Under the pieces are notes generated by a model, which searched no databases, was not told the origin of the DNA, and was given only the letters and a program-made list of their open reading frames with translations. Shown here in pieces: positions 1-42,000 of a stretch of DNA of 42,000 bases (within the stretch, counting starts at the first letter, position 1; each line of letters starts with the position of its first letter). Source of the DNA: a virus. The translations under genes were made by a program, and so were the position numbers. The stretch covers positions 1 to 42,000 of the IMG/VR virus record IMGVR_UViG_3300024308_000013; one strand, written 5' to 3'.

Positions 1-127
1 GTGCGCCAGCTGACGACCGGGTTCGCGGCAATCAGCGGTAAAACAAAGGCAGTCTACAACGCCAGCGCCAGTTCGTTCGAGGAAATCCGGCGCGGAGCTT
101 TGGAAGCGGAGGTCATCGACGACAACG
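1..127. repeat. Terminal overlap of a circular contig (left copy)
   Basis: These 127 bases are identical to bases 41874-42000. Joining the two copies keeps the tail-fibre reading frame open (39366 to 41873 is exactly 836 codons), so the overlap marks circular closure and the unique genome is 41,873 bp. A length of 127 equals a common maximum k-mer of short-read assemblers, so this is more likely an assembly overlap than a biological terminal repeat. Confidence 0.93.
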
Positions 128-2142
128 CCGCCTTTGTGGAAATCTACATCCAGGCGGGCGGCAACGCGGCGAACTTCGTCGAGCTCTCGCTGGTCGGTCT
201 CTACAAGGGCGACAGCGCCGTCTATCGGCCGGCGCCGGTCGGGGGCGATCCGGCGACGGCGATCGCCAATGCCGCCTATGGAGTGGAGAAGCTGTTCGCC
301 GAGCCGAACCTCTTCCCCGATCCCGAGCTCCGGTACACCGGCATCGTTAGCGGCATGTGGACGGGCGTTCGGCCGGCCGCCACCACATCACGCGGTCGCC
401 GGGCCATCGTTCTCGATGGCTCGAAGATCTCTTATCTGAACATGCCGGCGGAATGGTTCGGTGGTCCTGGGGCGACCTTTTCGGCCACGGTCACCGTCGA
501 GAACGTGGTGTCGGGTGGCGGATATGGCGTCTTCATCTGGGTGCGCTTCTACGACGCGGCGGGCTCTGAAATCGCCGGCTCGGTGCAGCAGCTGTTGTCG
601 TCCAACGTCACCAACCCGTCCGAGCAGGTTCTGAAGCTTGAGGGCGCGACGATCCCGGCGGGCTGCGCCACAGTTCGCTTGTATCTCGACACCAACTCGA
701 GCGCCGGCACGTCCATGACGCTTTCGCGGATCGGGTTCTATCGCGGCGCGAAAGCGGACTATCGTCCAGCGATCGTGACGCCTGCACGAACGGTCTTTGT
801 CGATGGCGCGACTGGGGCCGACAGTAATCTCGGGACCGCTACCTCGCCGTTCGCAACTCCCGAGCGGGGTCTAATGGCGCTGCGTCGGCCGGATCTCACC
901 TATTCCGGGCGAATGGTCATCGCGGCTGGCGACTACCCGATGTCGTCGTTGACGCTGGGAACCATCTCGGGATCGTCTTTGGGGAATGCCTATGATCTCA
1001 TAGTCGAGGCCGCACCGAACGCGCGGGTGCGATTCATCCTGGGCAACAAACTGGTCTCGGTTACAAAGACCGCTGGTCGGACGAACGTGTATCAAGCAGC
1101 GCTTGCCGCCGCCGCCGCGCCCGCGAATTTCGTGCTTGAGCACGATAGTCCGGAAGGGTTGATCTCCCTTGCCGAGCGCCACGCCCTGCACCTAGGCGAG
1201 ACGCACCGCAGCCCTGTAACGCGCCTGCGGCCGGTCGCCGACCTGGCGGCCTGCGATGCCACGCCCAGCTCGCACTACTACGCCGGCGGCGTCCTCTACT
1301 TCCATGCGCCAGGCAGCTCTGACCCGACGACCTCGGGCAAGGAGTACTATGTCCCGCTGAACCAGACCTCCTGGTACCGAACCAGCGGCATTGCGACCGA
1401 GCAGGGCGGGCGCATCGGCTATGTTGAGGTTCGTGGCATCCAGGTCTGGTATGCGTACGAAGGGTTCCAGATGGGCGGCGTGTCCAGCTACAAGCTGATC
1501 AACTGCACGGCCGTGGGCTGCGCTGGCCGCGGCTTCGACGCCCTTGGAGCTTCGGGCGAAGAGGTTAACTGCCGTTCAATCGCGTGCGGGGAGGACGGAT
1601 TCGCCTATGCGGCGGCCGATGGGTCGCCCGGCGTCCTGTACCAGGACCCTCGGACCCTTTGCATCAACCCGTACGCTGCCATGAACGGCGATGACGGCTG
1701 GTCCAGCCACATCCGCTGCAACGCCGTGATCATCGGGGGCCTGAGCGAGTACAACGACGACGGCGGGTTTATCCCAGTGCTTGGCGCTGAGGTCGTCGCA
1801 TACGGGTCGCACGCCCGCAAGAACGGCCAACGGGCGGGGATCAACGGCGCCATCGGCGAGGGCTTCTCTGTTCGCCAAGCGCCGGCTGGGACCGAAGGCG
1901 GCGTCAACACCTGCCTGGTCGGCTACGATCTGATCTCGGAAGGCAACACGCGGAACTTCTGCGTGGGCGACGCCGGCGGCAACGTCACGCTCTACCGACC
2001 ATTGTCGATGAATGCATCGTCGTTCGGCTATGCTTCGCTGAACACCGGGGCGGCCATGACGGTTGTCGATGGTAAGACCCTGAACGACGCCACGGCGAAG
2101 TACGGGACTGTCACCGTCATAACGCCAGCGGCGTTGACCTAA
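1..2142 (+). CDS. Tail fibre/spike protein, C-terminal part (continues from 39366 across the circular join)
   Basis: This is the distal 713 residues of a protein of about 1,549 residues whose start lies at 39366. Base 1 is mid-gene, so the GTG there is not a start. Residues 1-100 finish the fourth copy of a 173-residue module, and bases 301 to about 780 encode a fifth, diverged copy (EPNLFPD opening, GGPGATFSATVTVE core, closing near ADYRP). From about residue 260 the sequence changes to a right-handed parallel beta-helix type: a TVFVDGATGADSNLGTATSPF opening typical of DUF1565/pectate-lyase-like proteins, then repeated short strands with Gly/Asn turns and GGLSEYNDDGG. Such domains bind or cleave surface polysaccharide. 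No catalytic residues can be assigned with confidence. It stops at TAA 2140-2142, directly abutting the convergent gene's stop codon. Confidence 0.9.
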   Translation: MRQLTTGFAAISGKTKAVYNASASSFEEIRRGALEAEVIDDNAAFVEIYIQAGGNAANFVELSLVGLYKGDSAVYRPAPVGGDPATAIANAAYGVEKLFAEPNLFPDPELRYTGIVSGMWTGVRPAATTSRGRRAIVLDGSKISYLNMPAEWFGGPGATFSATVTVENVVSGGGYGVFIWVRFYDAAGSEIAGSVQQLLSSNVTNPSEQVLKLEGATIPAGCATVRLYLDTNSSAGTSMTLSRIGFYRGAKADYRPAIVTPARTVFVDGATGADSNLGTATSPFATPERGLMALRRPDLTYSGRMVIAAGDYPMSSLTLGTISGSSLGNAYDLIVEAAPNARVRFILGNKLVSVTKTAGRTNVYQAALAAAAAPANFVLEHDSPEGLISLAERHALHLGETHRSPVTRLRPVADLAACDATPSSHYYAGGVLYFHAPGSSDPTTSGKEYYVPLNQTSWYRTSGIATEQGGRIGYVEVRGIQVWYAYEGFQMGGVSSYKLINCTAVGCAGRGFDALGASGEEVNCRSIACGEDGFAYAAADGSPGVLYQDPRTLCINPYAAMNGDDGWSSHIRCNAVIIGGLSEYNDDGGFIPVLGAEVVAYGSHARKNGQRAGINGAIGEGFSVRQAPAGTEGGVNTCLVGYDLISEGNTRNFCVGDAGGNVTLYRPLSMNASSFGYASLNTGAAMTVVDGKTLNDATAKYGTVTVITPAALT

Positions 2143-3168
2143 CTAGAAGTTCTGAAAGAGAAATCGCTTTTCAGCGATTTCTCTTATCTTCTCCGTAGAA
2201 ATCGAGAACTCGTCGTTAGTAATCCGCCAGTCTGGGCTATGAGCGCTTGTTACCTTTCTCACGCCGAACGAAATATCATTGGTACTTGCGTTATGCAGGG
2301 TCACTACAAGCCACCTGCAGCGTTCGATATTAAAGCTCACGGTGCCCGTCGGGTAGGCGAAGGCAGGGTCGGCGCTACCGATGACGAATGCGAAATCAGG
2401 ACTGGACGAGAGCAGCAGGCCGCGTTCGTAGCATTGTATGAGGTTCGGCTCAAAGTCTCTGAGTTCAAGTCCTCTATCAGTTTCTCGCCATGAGCGGCTG
2501 ATGAACCTGATATTGTTGACCCTTGTAAATCGACCGTTCCAGAAGCTGGCCACTTCAAAGCAGCCGCCCCAGCCATCTGAAAGCCCGTCGCCGTTGAGCG
2601 CTTGTTGGGCGAGGACGTAGGAGCAGAAGCTTAGCGCTACTGCAATCCCCTCATCCTGGCTTCTCCGTCCGTCGCCGACGCATCTCAAAACCGCCGGGAA
2701 GTGCTCCCGGAAAGCGTCTGCACCGGATCCAGCCGCCAATGCATATTCGCGATCGGTGGAGCCCGGCAAAAATGCAGCCCCGCCGATCGGGATAATTTGA
2801 GCCCTTGAGCCGGGCGCTTCGTACCAAAGCAGGTAGCCCTCTAATTCTGTGCGCTTCTCAATCGGGAAGGCGTCAAACAATTTTTGAAATTCGTCAGGCG
2901 TGCGCAACGGTCTTCGGCGCGTTTCGCCACTGACAAATGCTGCGAAAGCCCGGGCGGCGTTTGCTGATCCGGCTAGACCAATGGCAATCCGGTCGCTGGC
3001 GATAATCAGTTTCTGGGTAAGCGAGGTCGGCCTGCGCTGGTTCGGGTTCCACGTCGGCATACTCTCGACCAGTGGCAGCTGCTCCAGCGGTTCGCCAAAG
3101 GAGCTGACCATCGTGTCTGCTATCAGGATGGGGTGCGGTCCCCATCCGAAACAGGCAACGAGCGTCAT
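2143..3168 (-). CDS. Proteasome/HslV-like Ntn-hydrolase, accessory gene
   Basis: The 341-residue product begins Met-Thr-Leu-Val-Ala. Met before Thr is normally removed, which would expose Thr1. Counted from that Thr, Asp falls at position 17 in ILIADTMVS, the exact spacing of active proteasome beta subunits. A Lys in QKLIIASDRIAIGLAGS matches the Lys33 region, with an insertion of about 19 residues before it, and the AGS turn matches Gly47. AAGSGADAF (147-149 GSG, Met=1) matches the Ser129 GSG motif, and DGWGG (D198) matches the Asp166 loop, with Gly in place of Ser169. About 120 residues follow the core. The gene is visibly AT-richer than its neighbours, stands alone on the minus strand between tail fibre and lysis genes, and probably is a horizontally acquired moron. 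Its substrate is unknown. Confidence 0.75.
   Translation of the reverse strand: MTLVACFGWGPHPILIADTMVSSFGEPLEQLPLVESMPTWNPNQRRPTSLTQKLIIASDRIAIGLAGSANAARAFAAFVSGETRRRPLRTPDEFQKLFDAFPIEKRTELEGYLLWYEAPGSRAQIIPIGGAAFLPGSTDREYALAAGSGADAFREHFPAVLRCVGDGRRSQDEGIAVALSFCSYVLAQQALNGDGLSDGWGGCFEVASFWNGRFTRVNNIRFISRSWRETDRGLELRDFEPNLIQCYERGLLLSSSPDFAFVIGSADPAFAYPTGTVSFNIERCRWLVVTLHNASTNDISFGVRKVTSAHSPDWRITNDEFSISTEKIREIAEKRFLFQNF
2156..2185. terminator. Bidirectional hairpin inside the 3' end of the convergent gene
   Basis: A 13-bp perfect stem (AAGAGAAATCGCT / AGCGATTTCTCTT) with a TTTC loop begins 14 bases after the tail-fibre stop. It lies within the last codons of the minus-strand gene. There is no long T tract on either side, but the position is that of a terminator for the late tail transcript, and possibly for the opposing transcript. 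Confidence 0.6.
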
Positions 3169-3265
3169 TAAGCCAGTATCTCGTCGGCGATCGGCGGCAT
3201 GAGGCGCTCCCTAGCTTAGGCGACAGCTAAGCCCTAACCGCGCGCCCAAGTCGAGCCCGCCGCGA

Positions 3266-3282
3266 TGCGAACCAGGTTCGCA
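3266..3282. repeat. Dispersed palindrome, site 1
   Basis: TGCGAACCAGGTTCGCA is a perfect palindrome around a central base. It lies in the 158-bp divergent intergenic region between the Ntn-hydrolase gene and the lysis cassette, 45 bp before the lysis start. A smaller dyad (GCTTAG, 7-base loop, CTAAGC) lies at about 3213-3231. This is one of only two intergenic copies. Confidence 0.9.
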
Positions 3283-3326
3283 CCATCACCAAAGCCAGGC
3301 CTTGTGGCCGGAGGTAGGAGCATGCA

Positions 3327-3797
3327 GTGGATCTCCCCACGGCAGTCGAGAAGTATTGGGCGCACTTCACCGCTGCTGCGGCCGGCGTGTGGATCGTCGT
3401 CAAGGCGCTCTGGGACCGCTGGGATAAGCGCCGGGCCGAAGCGGCGGCGGCCAAGGCCGCTGGGGCCGTTGTCGAGGTCGACCTTGCCCGCCTTACCCAG
3501 GACGCCGTTGGCAAGGCGGTGCAAATCCTGCGCGAAGAGGTCGAGCGGATCTCCGAGACCGCCGGTCGGCTGTCCGACGAGCTGGAGGAAGTGCGGGCCG
3601 AGGTTCGGGAGCTGCATCGCATGATCGCAACCAAGGATGCGGAGCTGGCGCTGGCCTACGGCAAGATCCGCCAGCTGGAGGCCGAGAACGAAGCGCTTCG
3701 CCGTCGACTGGTGGCCCTGGGTGAGAGGCCGGAGCTGCCGTTCCAGGCGGCGGAGATCGTCGCCGACGGCACGGTCAAGAGGATGGGGGAAGGCTGA
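3327..3797 (+). CDS. Membrane-anchored coiled-coil protein, first gene of lysis cassette
   Basis: The 156-residue product starts at GTG 3327, with AGGAG 6 bases upstream. Residues about 13-28 form one hydrophobic segment, and residues about 55-125 are a charged heptad-like helix (EVERISETAGRLSDELEEV and onward) typical of a coiled coil. It overlaps the next start by one base (TGATG). Position ahead of a two-helix membrane protein and an endolysin suggests a holin partner, antiholin or lysis accessory protein. No family was recognised. Confidence 0.7.
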   Translation: MDLPTAVEKYWAHFTAAAAGVWIVVKALWDRWDKRRAEAAAAKAAGAVVEVDLARLTQDAVGKAVQILREEVERISETAGRLSDELEEVRAEVRELHRMIATKDAELALAYGKIRQLEAENEALRRRLVALGERPELPFQAAEIVADGTVKRMGEG

Positions 3798-39365: not shown

Positions 39366-42000
39366 ATGGCCATCGGTATCCCTGAATTCGCCACGCAACT
39401 GGCCGACCTTCAGGCGCAGTTCGTCGCCGGGGACATCGACCAGGGCGAGCTGGCAGGCGGTCTTCGGGCGCTCTGGGAGGAGTCGGAGAACATCCCGCTC
39501 CTCTTCCAGAACATGCAAGAGGTCATCGCCATCAAGGCGACGATCCTGACGGCCTTTCAAGCCGCCCTTCAGGTCAAGGGCACGGTCGCGTCGGTGAGCG
39601 CCCTGCCGGCCGGGGCGGTCGACCGCGACGCCTACAAGATCGACAACGCCGCTGACGCCAAGGACAAGCACCTCTATGTGCGAGTGGCTGGTGCGTGGGT
39701 CGATCTCGGTTCTTTCGGCGGCGATGCTGGCCGTAGCGGGTACCAGGTGGCCGTCGCAAACGGCTTCACGGGGACTGAGACCGAGTACGGCAACCTGCCA
39801 ATTACCAAGGCCGCAATTGCGCAGACTGCGGCGAACAACGCGGATGCGAAAGCGGCGCTAGCGCAAGAGAAGGCTGGCCTCGCTGTTGAGAAGGCGGCGA
39901 TCGCTCAAGCGGCGGCCGACAACGCCGACGCCAAAGCCATCGCGGCCCAGGCCGTTGTGGATGGGGCGGAGACCATCCTCGACGCCGTGCCGCTGGCTGA
40001 GGCTGCGCGAGACGCAGCCGAAGCTTCACGCGTCTCGGCCGAGATGACGCGCAACACCGTCCAGGGCTCGATGCCCTTGCTGTTCGCGTCCCCCAACCTG
40101 TTCCCGGACGCCGACCTGACGGGCTTATTCGCTAAGGACTGGTCAGCCGACGTCCCCACCAGCCAGATCGGGGGGCGCCCGGCCCTGGTTTTCACGGGCG
40201 TGACGCGCACGCAGCGGACGCCTGTCGCGATGCTTGGTGGGCCTGGCGCGATCTTCTCGGCTGGCCTCATCGTGGAAAACCTTACGTGGGTTTCCGGTGG
40301 CGCGAACCTGATCCTGATCCGGCAGCTCGATATCGCCCGCAACCCGATCAGCGGAACGTCGGTGACGCTGTTGCAGACCGGCGCGAACACCTCGACCTCG
40401 CAGTCGCTCACGACGACGGCGCAGACGATCCACGCCGACGCGGCCTTCGTGGAGCTGTACATCTCATCGGGCGGCAATGCCGGCAATGTCGTGACCGCGT
40501 CGCAGATCGGCCTCTACAAGGGCGCGAGCGCCGCCTACCGCCCCGGTGTTACCGGGCGCGTTCCCTCGGTCTCCGATCTCTACGGCGTGCTGGCTGGCCT
40601 GGCGCGTCTGTACGGCGAACCGAATTTGTTCCCCGACAAAACCATGACGGGCGTGGGCTGGAGCGGCCCTATGACGACGTCGCGCCGCGCCGGTCGTAAG
40701 ACGCTGCGCGCGACGGGCGGCGATCGTTATGTCCGTCTAGCGGCGTCCGCATTGGGCGATCCGGGGGCGACGTTCTCCGTGGGTGTGACGGTCGAGGCTG
40801 TCGGCTACACCAGCGGTGCGGCCAACAGCGTCCTGGTTCGTCAGCTGACCTCTGGCGGCGCCGTGATCTCCGGTACGACGGTCACGCTGAACAATAGTTC
40901 GACCAAGTCTTTCGTCGAAGCCACGCCCGCCGTGGCCGAAGCCATGGTGCTCGACGCTACGGCCGCCTTCGTGGAGCTGTATCTCCAGGCCAGCGGAAAT
41001 GCGGCGAACTTCGTCGAGGTCTCGCTGATCGGCTTCTACAAGGGGGACACGGCCTTCTATCGCCCTGTCATGGACGGCCTGGCCACGACGCCGGACCTCT
41101 ACGGCGCTGTGGCTGGGGTGGCTCGTCTCTACAGCGAGCCGAACCTCTTCCCCGACAAGTCCATGTCTGGCGTGGGCTGGAGCGGCGCGCTCACGACGGG
41201 TCGTCGATCGGGCCGCAAGACCCTCAAGACGACCGGCGGTGATCGCTATATCCGGGTCGCCGCGTCGGTGCTGGGTGGCCCCGGGGCGACCTTTTCGGCC
41301 GGCGTGACGGTCGAGGCGATGGGTTGGACGGGCGGCAGCGCGAACAGCGTGCTGATCCGGCAGCTGACCTCGGCGGCTGCGGTGATCTCCGGTACGACCC
41401 AGACCATCTACACGGGATCGAATCGGACCTTCACCGAACCGACGCCGGGCGTGCTGGAAAACGTCACCATCGACGCGTCCGCCGCCTACATCGAGTTCTA
41501 CCTGCAAGCGTCGGGCAACGCCGCCAATTACGTCGAGATCTCGTTGGCGGGCCTCTACAAGGGTGACAGCGCGCTCTACCGCCCGCCCATGGACGGCCTG
41601 GCCACCACGCCGGACCTCTATGGCGCGGTGGCTGGTCTCTCGCGCCTGTTCAGCGAGCCGAACGTCTTCCCCGACGCATCGATGTCGGGGGCTGGCTGGA
41701 GCGGCGCGATGACGACCAGCACGCGGGATGGGCGCAAGACGCTCCGGGCGACAGGCGCTGACCGCTACATTCGCGTTCCCGCCAGCACGCTCGGCGGGCC
41801 AGGAGCGACCTTCTCGGTCGGCGTTGTCGTCGAGGCGGTCGGCTACACTTCGGGCGGCGCCAATACGGTGATTGTGCGCCAGCTGACGACCGGGTTCGCG
41901 GCAATCAGCGGTAAAACAAAGGCAGTCTACAACGCCAGCGCCAGTTCGTTCGAGGAAATCCGGCGCGGAGCTTTGGAAGCGGAGGTCATCGACGACAACG
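39366..42000 (+). CDS. Tail fibre/spike protein, N-terminal part (continues at base 1)
   Basis: ATG 39366 opens a frame with no stop before the window end; the last 127 bases repeat 1-127, so it continues in frame to 2142 (about 1,549 residues in all). Residues 1-65 form a helical attachment region. Residues about 70-130 hold KGTVASVSALPAGAVDRDAYKI and a short Gly-rich hinge. Residues about 140-240 are an Ala-rich coiled coil with internal repeats (AIAQTAANNADAKAALAQ). From about 40089 tandem modules of 173-176 residues begin. It should bind the cell surface and probably hydrolyse polysaccharide through its beta-helix. Confidence 0.9.
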   Translation, partial: MAIGIPEFATQLADLQAQFVAGDIDQGELAGGLRALWEESENIPLLFQNMQEVIAIKATILTAFQAALQVKGTVASVSALPAGAVDRDAYKIDNAADAKDKHLYVRVAGAWVDLGSFGGDAGRSGYQVAVANGFTGTETEYGNLPITKAAIAQTAANNADAKAALAQEKAGLAVEKAAIAQAAADNADAKAIAAQAVVDGAETILDAVPLAEAARDAAEASRVSAEMTRNTVQGSMPLLFASPNLFPDADLTGLFAKDWSADVPTSQIGGRPALVFTGVTRTQRTPVAMLGGPGAIFSAGLIVENLTWVSGGANLILIRQLDIARNPISGTSVTLLQTGANTSTSQSLTTTAQTIHADAAFVELYISSGGNAGNVVTASQIGLYKGASAAYRPGVTGRVPSVSDLYGVLAGLARLYGEPNLFPDKTMTGVGWSGPMTTSRRAGRKTLRATGGDRYVRLAASALGDPGATFSVGVTVEAVGYTSGAANSVLVRQLTSGGAVISGTTVTLNNSSTKSFVEATPAVAEAMVLDATAAFVELYLQASGNAANFVEVSLIGFYKGDTAFYRPVMDGLATTPDLYGAVAGVARLYSEPNLFPDKSMSGVGWSGALTTGRRSGRKTLKTTGGDRYIRVAASVLGGPGATFSAGVTVEAMGWTGGSANSVLIRQLTSAAAVISGTTQTIYTGSNRTFTEPTPGVLENVTIDASAAYIEFYLQASGNAANYVEISLAGLYKGDSALYRPPMDGLATTPDLYGAVAGLSRLFSEPNVFPDASMSGAGWSGAMTTSTRDGRKTLRATGADRYIRVPASTLGGPGATFSVGVVVEAVGYTSGGANTVIVRQLTTGFAAISGKTKAVYNASASSFEEIRRGALEAEVIDDN
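40089..42000 (+). repeat. Tandem 519-bp modules in the tail fibre gene
   Basis: Module starts (codons for xPNxFPD) lie at 40089, 40617, 41136, 41655 and, across the join, at 301. The first spacing is 528 bp and the next three are exactly 519 bp (173 residues). Each has the core GGPGATFS or GDPGATFS, then AAFVELY-like and ISLAGLYKGDSALYRP-like ends, reading as a carbohydrate-binding jelly-roll. Confidence 0.9.
41874..42000. repeat. Terminal overlap of a circular contig (right copy)
   Basis: Identical to bases 1-127. It lies inside the fourth tail-fibre module. Confidence 0.93.

What the first reader, a model, noticed from the sequence alone, without database searches (positions are those of the whole stretch)
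2143..3168. Phage-encoded proteasome-type Ntn hydrolase with intact catalytic residues
After Met removal the protein would start with Thr1. Asp stands exactly at position 17 in ILIADTMVS, a Lys in a QKLII...LAGS context matches Lys33/Gly47, GSG matches the Ser129 motif, and an Asp in DGWGG matches Asp166. Known: these residues define active proteasome beta, HslV and related peptidases. Unusual: it is encoded alone in a temperate phage, on the minus strand between fibre and lysis genes, with an AT-richer composition, an insertion of about 19 residues before the Lys and about 120 extra C-terminal residues, and no unfoldase partner gene. Inference: a moron for anti-defence, superinfection exclusion or self-maturation. 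I know of no described phage system of this kind.
Basis: partly seen in the sequence, partly recalled or inferred. Interest (0 to 1): 0.86.

Follow-up and report, generated by a model that had tools for sequence, protein, structure and literature searches.

The report
Phage-carried proteasome-type peptidase gene
A temperate phage of Caulobacter-like bacteria carries, as a single swappable extra gene, a protein built like the cutting subunit of the proteasome; such genes were already known in phages, but this long form is an unlabelled subfamily that also sits in some bacterial anti-phage defence regions, so it may be a weapon in phage-bacteria conflict.

Summary
The ORF at 2143-3168 (-) encodes a 341-aa proteasome-type Ntn hydrolase with Thr1, Asp17, a Lys33 equivalent after a 19-residue insertion, Gly47 and GSG. 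I found 11 relatives (five chromosomes, two plasmids, four viral contigs); Thr1, Asp17 and Lys are invariant, and one relative lacks the insertion. The family profile ranks HslV-type proteins first among 2,011 ORFs; a five-sequence AlphaFold model (pTM 0.58) matches proteasome subunits (top E 5e-7). The claimed Asp166 is not conserved.

It is a moron: opposite strand, lowest-GC kilobase of the phage, replaced by an unrelated DUF6236 gene in a 90%-identical phage. One relative lies inside a type I R-M operon, another beside a candidate defence gene.

Phage proteasome homologues as a kind are published (PPH, AAH; PHROG 1040), so 'no described phage system of this kind' fails. The long form matches no Pfam, PHROG, NCBIfam or PADLOC model and fails tested features of PPH, RPC, PMI and connectase: probably an unnamed subfamily. 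Best guess: a stand-alone threonine peptidase used in phage-host or phage-phage conflict. Function is inferred, not shown.

The parts
2143..3168 (-). Gene for the long-form proteasome-type Ntn hydrolase (P0001, 341 aa)
   Evidence: ORF; leave-one-out family profile E 1e-28; AlphaFold model and Foldseek against PDB
3163..3165 (-). Codon of the predicted nucleophile Thr1 (residue 2 of the ORF)
   Evidence: T in 12/12 members; in 8/8 that were not picked with a pattern requiring it
3115..3117 (-). Codon of Asp17 (residue 18 of the ORF)
   Evidence: D in 12/12 members, 8/8 unbiased
3016..3108 (-). Insertion region between Asp17 and the Lys (residues 21-51; net +19 residues against the proteasome)
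   Evidence: Lys at mature 52 here and 54-60 in ten relatives but 32 in L127; unstructured in the model, pLDDT under 50
3010..3012 (-). Codon of the Lys33 equivalent (residue 53)
   Evidence: K in 12/12; aligns to Lys33 of HslV
2968..2970 (-). Codon of the Gly47 (oxyanion hole) equivalent (residue 67)
   Evidence: G in 11/12
2722..2730 (-). GSG motif (residues 147-149), Ser129 region
   Evidence: G-[S/T]-G in 12/12
2146..2517 (-). C-terminal extension (about residues 218-341), fold unknown
   Evidence: Shared by the full-length relatives; pLDDT under 50
3169..3261 (.). Upstream part of the exchanged block; homology to the close relative L002 resumes at 3262
   Evidence: blastn window against L002

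Best explanation
The gene is an accessory (moron) gene of a temperate phage. It encodes a proteasome-family threonine hydrolase that needs no propeptide: host methionine aminopeptidase would remove Met and expose Thr1, which with Asp17 and the Lys33 equivalent forms the catalytic centre in the alpha-beta-beta-alpha core. The 19-residue insertion next to the substrate-binding strand probably forms a lid or selectivity loop, and the C-terminal extension a docking or oligomerisation surface, so the enzyme can act on a narrow set of protein targets without a dedicated AAA+ unfoldase. It is most likely used in phage-host or phage-phage conflict (defence of the lysogen, or removal of a host defence protein) rather than in virion assembly. 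Shown here: family, fold, conservation of the active site, moron status, recurrence in phages and in some defence-gene neighbourhoods. Inferred: Met removal, peptidase activity, lid role, conflict function. My step-wise estimates: proteasome-type family 0.97; catalytically competent 0.8; accessory rather than essential phage gene 0.9; role in conflict 0.45.
For: Family and fold: catalytic positions invariant; the family profile puts proteasome-family ORFs in 44 of its top 45 places among 2,011 ORFs, of which only 95 are of that family (related sequences are counted, so this is not a probability); HMM-HMM alignment to HslV puts Thr1, Asp17, Lys33 and Gly47 in register (P 0.0024; with the 7-member profile, score 26.7 against at most 18.5 in 20 column shuffles); the A2 profile hits proteasome subunits in 29 of 30 PDB matches, weakly; the five-sequence AlphaFold model has pTM 0.58 with most of the core at pLDDT about 60-86, and the listed Foldseek matches are all proteasome subunits, top E 4.6e-7, 1,064 matches at E <= 0.001. 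Moron: opposite strand, lowest-GC segment, replaced by a DUF6236 gene in L002, no gene at the site in Caulobacter prophage L088 and viral contig L003. Recurrence in other phages: L204 beside a terminase on the opposite strand, L209 near an integrase, L214 in a 34%-GC cargo block between a repressor/MuA-type transposase region and host genes. Conflict: L128 lies between hsdS and hsdR of a type I R-M operon and overlaps hsdR; L131 lies next to candidate defence protein PDC-S36 and 4 kb from a PtuA/PtuB (Septu-like) pair, in a TniQ/transposase element; L127 lies 3 kb from a multiubiquitin/ThiF operon.
Against: Only two of seven bacterial or plasmid relatives sit directly with recognised defence genes; four (L123, L124, L125, L164) lie among other genes with no defence gene recognised on inspection. 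Almost no shared neighbour across loci: a ThiF in the two plasmid loci and one short match between L125 and L164. No tested member matches PADLOC. No activity data. Proteasome beta subunits are inactive until assembled, and ring formation by this family is unknown. The model of the C-terminal 120 residues is not usable.
Confidence: 0.45

Rival explanations
1. A general housekeeping-type or stress peptidase that helps the lysogen, borrowing a host unfoldase such as HslU or acting on unfolded proteins, with no role in conflict.
For: Fuchs et al. found no contexts or AAA+ partners suggestive of a specific function for the new proteasome homologues and consider unfoldase-independent roles; Caulobacter has an HslV-type protein (PF00227 control); several relatives stand alone in chromosomes.
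Against: Very sparse distribution (5 positive genomes among roughly 1,300 looked at), low GC against the surroundings in most members and carriage by phages, plasmids and a transposon fit a mobile conflict gene better.
Confidence: 0.25
2. A highly specific transpeptidase or ligase like connectase rather than a protease: the insertion between Asp17 and Lys covers the active site and the enzyme joins or trims one partner protein.
For: The insertion lies in the segment between Asp17 and Lys33, at or next to the S3/S4 site that carries the connectase specificity element (exact strand assignment inferred); no unfoldase or co-conserved degradation partner.
Against: Connectase lacks helices H1/H2, whereas the model shows helices 69-85 and 91-100 with good confidence. 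The insertion is modelled as unstructured, not as two helices.
Confidence: 0.15
3. A catalytically dead proteasome-like fold used as a binding protein.
For: Asp166 and Ser169 equivalents are not conserved.
Against: Thr1, Asp17 and Lys are invariant, with Thr directly after Met in every member. By contrast proteasome alpha subunits, which are inactive, have lost Thr1 (own knowledge).
Confidence: 0.08
4. A protease for maturation of the neighbouring tail fibre or another virion protein.
For: Tail-to-tail with the fibre gene, no gap, and exchanged together with the fibre as one block relative to L002.
Against: Opposite strand to the late genes; relatives with a similar tail-lysis arrangement lack it; other members lie near a terminase, an integrase, a repressor region, R-M genes or bacterial chromosomal genes, not fibres.
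Confidence: 0.07

Closest known systems
[quoted passage not shown]
   Same: Proteasome-type, phage-borne, no propeptide, no linked AAA+ gene; catalytic Thr1/Asp17/Lys33. I found a likely PPH (L165) in a terminase/portal region of an alphaproteobacterial genome.
   Different: PPH is about 140 residues without extension and lacks helix H2; this protein has 341 residues, an insertion before the Lys, a predicted H2 and a 120-residue C-terminal extension. The family profile does not detect L165 (rank 181, E 110).
[quoted passage not shown]
   Same: C-terminal extension with no known structural match; group I proteasome homologue.
   Different: RPC lacks H2 and is listed only in Proteobacteria; this family has a predicted H2, an insertion before the Lys not listed for RPC, a cyanobacterial plasmid member (L128) and phage members.
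HslV / proteasome beta subunit (PF00227)
   Same: Fold, Thr1, Asp17, Lys33, Gly47 in register.
   Different: No Pfam match at all; insertion and extension; no HslU seen nearby; no TT start and no GDGQ motif.
phrog_1040, 'peptidase HslV family' (PHROGs v4)
   Same: A known phage-protein family of the proteasome/HslV type.
   Different: Does not match P0001 or the seven relatives tested.
Connectase
   Same: Proteasome-family Ntn enzyme with an extra element near the active site and, in some variants, an extra C-terminal domain.

Membership tests
Proteasome-like Ntn hydrolase family | Nucleophile Thr1 (or Ser1) exposed at the N-terminus | tested here: met
   Thr directly after Met in 12/12, 8/8 unbiased; processing itself not tested
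Proteasome-like Ntn hydrolase family | Asp17, Lys33 and Gly47 equivalents in register | tested here: met
   D 12/12, K 12/12, G 11/12; HMM-HMM alignment to HslV
Proteasome-like Ntn hydrolase family | Alpha-beta-beta-alpha sandwich with helix pairs H1-H2 and H3-H4 | tested here: met
   Model m9d7091d41629 (pTM 0.58; core at moderate to good confidence); Foldseek top 50 all proteasome subunits, TM-score by target length up to 0.64
Canonical 20S proteasome beta subunit | Ser129, Asp166 and Ser169 (residue numbers from own knowledge) | tested here: not met
   GxG with S/T is kept, but the Asp166 and Ser169 positions are not conserved
Pfam Proteasome (PF00227) | Score above the gathering cut-off | tested here: not met
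   No Pfam match for P0001 or five relatives at E <= 10
HslV | About 175-residue subunit with TT start and GDGQ motif, partner HslU | tested here: not met
   341 aa, MTL..AD; no HslU seen nearby
PPH | About 140 residues, no insertion or extension, no H2 | tested here: not met
   341 aa, insertion, extension, helix 91-100
RPC | C-terminal extension | tested here: met
   About 120 residues beyond the core
RPC | Lacks helix H2 | tested here: not met
   Helix 91-100 in the model, pLDDT about 86 in that block; one model from a shallow alignment
RPC | Clusters with RPC sequences (WP_140207863 and others) | not testable with these tools
   Reference sequences not retrievable here
DPH | Clusters with DPH sequences (WP_074989469.1 and others) | not testable with these tools
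   Reference sequences not retrievable here
PMI-2 to PMI-6 | Insertion between helices H3 and H4 | tested here: not met
   H150-164 and H171-192 joined by a short loop
Connectase | Lacks H1/H2; two-helical insertion at S3/S4 | tested here: not met
   Helices 69-85 and 91-100 present; insertion region unstructured in the model
Phage moron (accessory gene) | Present/absent or replaced among close relatives, atypical composition, opposite orientation | tested here: met
   L002 has DUF6236 at the site; L003 and L088 show no gene there; GC 55.9% against 67.3%
Phage moron (accessory gene) | Own promoter and terminator | tested here: inconclusive
   No sigma-70-type promoter in 2000-3500; the one terminator-like hit is internal and no more than chance
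Known anti-phage defence proteins (PADLOC-DB 2.0) | Match to a PADLOC profile | tested here: not met
   None for P0001, L121, L128 or L131

The most novel reading that the evidence does not exclude
An undescribed subfamily of stand-alone proteasome-type threonine peptidases (340-410 aa, lid-like insertion and C-terminal domain) that spreads on temperate phages, plasmids and transposons as a defence or counter-defence module, including as an extra subunit inside a type I restriction-modification operon: a proteasome-fold effector in phage-bacteria conflict.
Probability: 0.35. Interest if true: 0.82.

Novelty: new variant of a known kind. Interest (0 to 1): 0.58.

Why it matters
Fuchs et al. found 22 new proteasome homologues and no functional clue for them. 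This subfamily gives two: recurrence at moron sites of unrelated temperate phages, and a bacterial copy embedded in a type I R-M operon with others in or near defence-rich mobile elements. If it works as proposed, the proteasome fold joins the tools of phage-bacteria conflict, with a one-gene test (wild type against Thr-to-Ala). It also offers new Thr-hydrolases with a possible built-in selectivity loop.

Tried and rejected
Single-protein searches found nothing credible: Pfam, PHROGs, PDB sequences, phage and plasmid tblastn, viral and genome scans with P0001; 'no hits' would have been a false end, since relatives lie at 20-28% identity. The Vibrio phage K251 g3 tblastn hit (E 0.4) spans two small ORFs and was dropped as chance. 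Most weak hits were chance ORFs; only L090 and L091 held up. The search for related loci with alignments A1, A4 and A5 found no viral relatives, and A2 was too diverse to use. The single-sequence AlphaFold model was poor (pLDDT 38.7) and was not used for fold claims. The HslV search of phage records returned mainly host-like DNA. Virion maturation was considered and disfavoured. The Asp166 claim was tested and rejected. Four viral members were selected by a pattern that includes MTL, Pro13 and Asp18, so they are not counted as independent evidence for Thr1 and Asp17.

Full report
WHAT IS THERE. The ORF at 2143-3168 on the minus strand (341 aa, ATG) is real. Its stop codon abuts the stop of the fibre gene, tail to tail. 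The window appears to be a complete circular phage genome: its ends share an exact 127-bp repeat, and the fibre ORF runs in frame across it. The phage has a GpA-type terminase, lambda-type portal, tape measure, lysozyme, integrase and Prim-Pol genes. Its nearest cellular relatives by lysozyme are in Caulobacter genomes.

WHY SIMPLE SEARCHES FAIL. Pfam, PHROGs, PDB sequences, phage and plasmid tblastn, and two contig collections all return nothing credible for the protein alone. A search of 385 genomes of the host class gave two true relatives hidden among chance hits (L090, L091). Their profile led to L121, L130/L131 and L163/L164; L121 led to two plasmids (L127, L128). A DNA pattern written from the N-terminal motif then found viral contigs, of which a profile of the first eight members confirmed L204 (= L205), L207, L209 and L214 at E 1e-32 or better. 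The family is rare: five positive genomes among roughly 1,300 looked at.

CONSERVATION. In 12 members, Thr after Met, Asp17 and the Lys are invariant; GxG (S or T in the middle) and the first Gly of a late GG motif are also invariant; the Gly47 equivalent is 11/12. For the eight members not chosen with a motif pattern, Thr1 and Asp17 are 8/8. The proposed Asp166 is not conserved. A profile without P0001 recovers it as the only significant ORF in the window (E 1e-28).

FAMILY AND FOLD. The profile of the first eight members, run against 2,011 ORFs that include 95 proteasome-family proteins, puts proteasome-family proteins in 44 of the top 45 places, top E 8.8e-5. HMM-HMM alignment to 24 HslV sequences aligns Thr1, Asp17, Lys33 and Gly47 in register at P 0.0024, and an earlier 7-member profile scored 26.7 against at most 18.5 in 20 column-shuffled controls. 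The HHalign probability is only about 12%, so this alone would not decide. An AlphaFold model from P0001 and four viral relatives has pTM 0.58, with most of residues 1-20, 51-131 and 142-217 at moderate to good confidence and the insertion and C-terminus not usefully modelled. Foldseek gives 1,064 PDB matches at E <= 0.001; the 50 listed are all proteasome subunits. BFVD matches include phage proteins named proteasome beta or HslV.

MORON STATUS. The gene is in the lowest-GC kilobase of the phage (55.9% against 67.3%) and lies on the strand opposite to its neighbours. L002, an IMG/VR contig about 90% identical on both sides, has an unrelated minus-strand gene with a DUF6236 domain at the site; the exchanged block includes the fibre. 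Viral contig L003 and the Caulobacter prophage L088 show no gene there. Other phages carry the family as a lone or cargo gene: L204 opposite and overlapping the terminase gene, L209 upstream of an integrase, L214 in AT-rich cargo beside a repressor and a Mu-type transposase. Most members are clearly lower in GC than their surroundings; L131, L204 and L207 are about equal.

CONTEXT OF BACTERIAL AND PLASMID RELATIVES. L128 (Oscillatoria plasmid) lies between hsdS and hsdR of a type I R-M operon and overlaps hsdR by 20 bases. L131 is beside a candidate defence gene (PDC-S36) and 4 kb from a PtuA/PtuB pair in an element with TniQ and an rve/Mu-type transposase. L127 (Candidatus Tenderia plasmid) is 3 kb from a multiubiquitin and ThiF operon, with an integrase-type and other genes between. 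The other four lie among genes in which I recognised no defence gene, though these neighbours were read by eye and not profiled. Across loci the only shared neighbours are a ThiF in the two plasmid loci and a 62-residue match between L125 and L164. The defence association is therefore suggestive, not established.

PRIOR ART AND NOVELTY. Fuchs, Alva and Lupas (PMC8665760) described 22 proteasome-like families, including the phage-borne PPH and AAH, and RPC with a C-terminal extension. They report no functional clue and no co-occurring AAA+ partner. So a phage-encoded proteasome homologue is not new. The present long form fails the tested features of PPH (size), RPC (H2 absent; Proteobacteria only), PMI (H3/H4 insertion) and connectase (no H1/H2), and matches no Pfam, PHROG, NCBIfam or PADLOC model in the members tested. 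Since RPC and DPH sequences could not be fetched, membership in one of them remains possible. I rate it a new variant of a known kind.

MECHANISM. Shown: fold, conserved active-site residues, mobile carriage. Inferred: Met removal exposes Thr1; the insertion, in the segment that in the proteasome lines the substrate pocket (own knowledge), limits access or selects substrates; the C-terminal extension docks or oligomerises; the enzyme works without its own unfoldase. The likeliest use is in conflict with other phages or host defences, at about 0.45.

Noticed in passing
window 1-127 and 41874-42000: Exact 127-bp direct terminal repeat: the record is probably a complete circular phage genome of 41,873 bp, and the fibre gene (39366 through the join to 2142, 1,549 codons plus stop) crosses it. 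The fibre contains several similar repeated modules of roughly 110 residues (seen by eye).
   Followed up: partly
L002:8155-9000 (-): A protein with a DUF6236 domain (PF19749, function unknown) occupies the same accessory site on the same strand in a 90%-identical phage: a candidate conflict gene in the same hotspot.
   Followed up: partly
L128:2058-11037 (Oscillatoria nigro-viridis plasmid pOSC7112.01): Type I R-M operon with the proteasome-type gene between hsdS and hsdR and a SprT-type metalloprotease after hsdR; ThiF and DUF6527 genes just upstream.
   Followed up: partly
L127:515-6945 (Candidatus Tenderia electrophaga plasmid): Multiubiquitin + small ORF + ThiF operon 3 kb upstream of a proteasome-type ORF that has no entry in the gene table at hand.
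   Followed up: partly
L131:1168-18523: Mobile element with ParB-like, PtuA/PtuB-like, PDC-S36, proteasome-type, TniQ and transposase genes: a defence-rich cargo region.
   Followed up: partly
L195: A different proteasome-like ORF (VTVIAA.., about 200 aa) next to a holin-like and a peptidase M15-like ORF (by eye) in an alphaproteobacterial genome, i.e. again at a presumptive phage lysis cassette.
   Followed up: no
window 3168-3200 (-): A 10-codon ORF (MPPIADEILA) preceded by GGGAG ends in TAATG, overlapping the start of the gene: possible translational coupling; read by eye only.
   Followed up: no
L209:3830-4318: A 162-aa ORF of unknown function starts 2 nt after the proteasome-type gene on the same strand; possible partner in that phage, not found at other loci.
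   Followed up: partly
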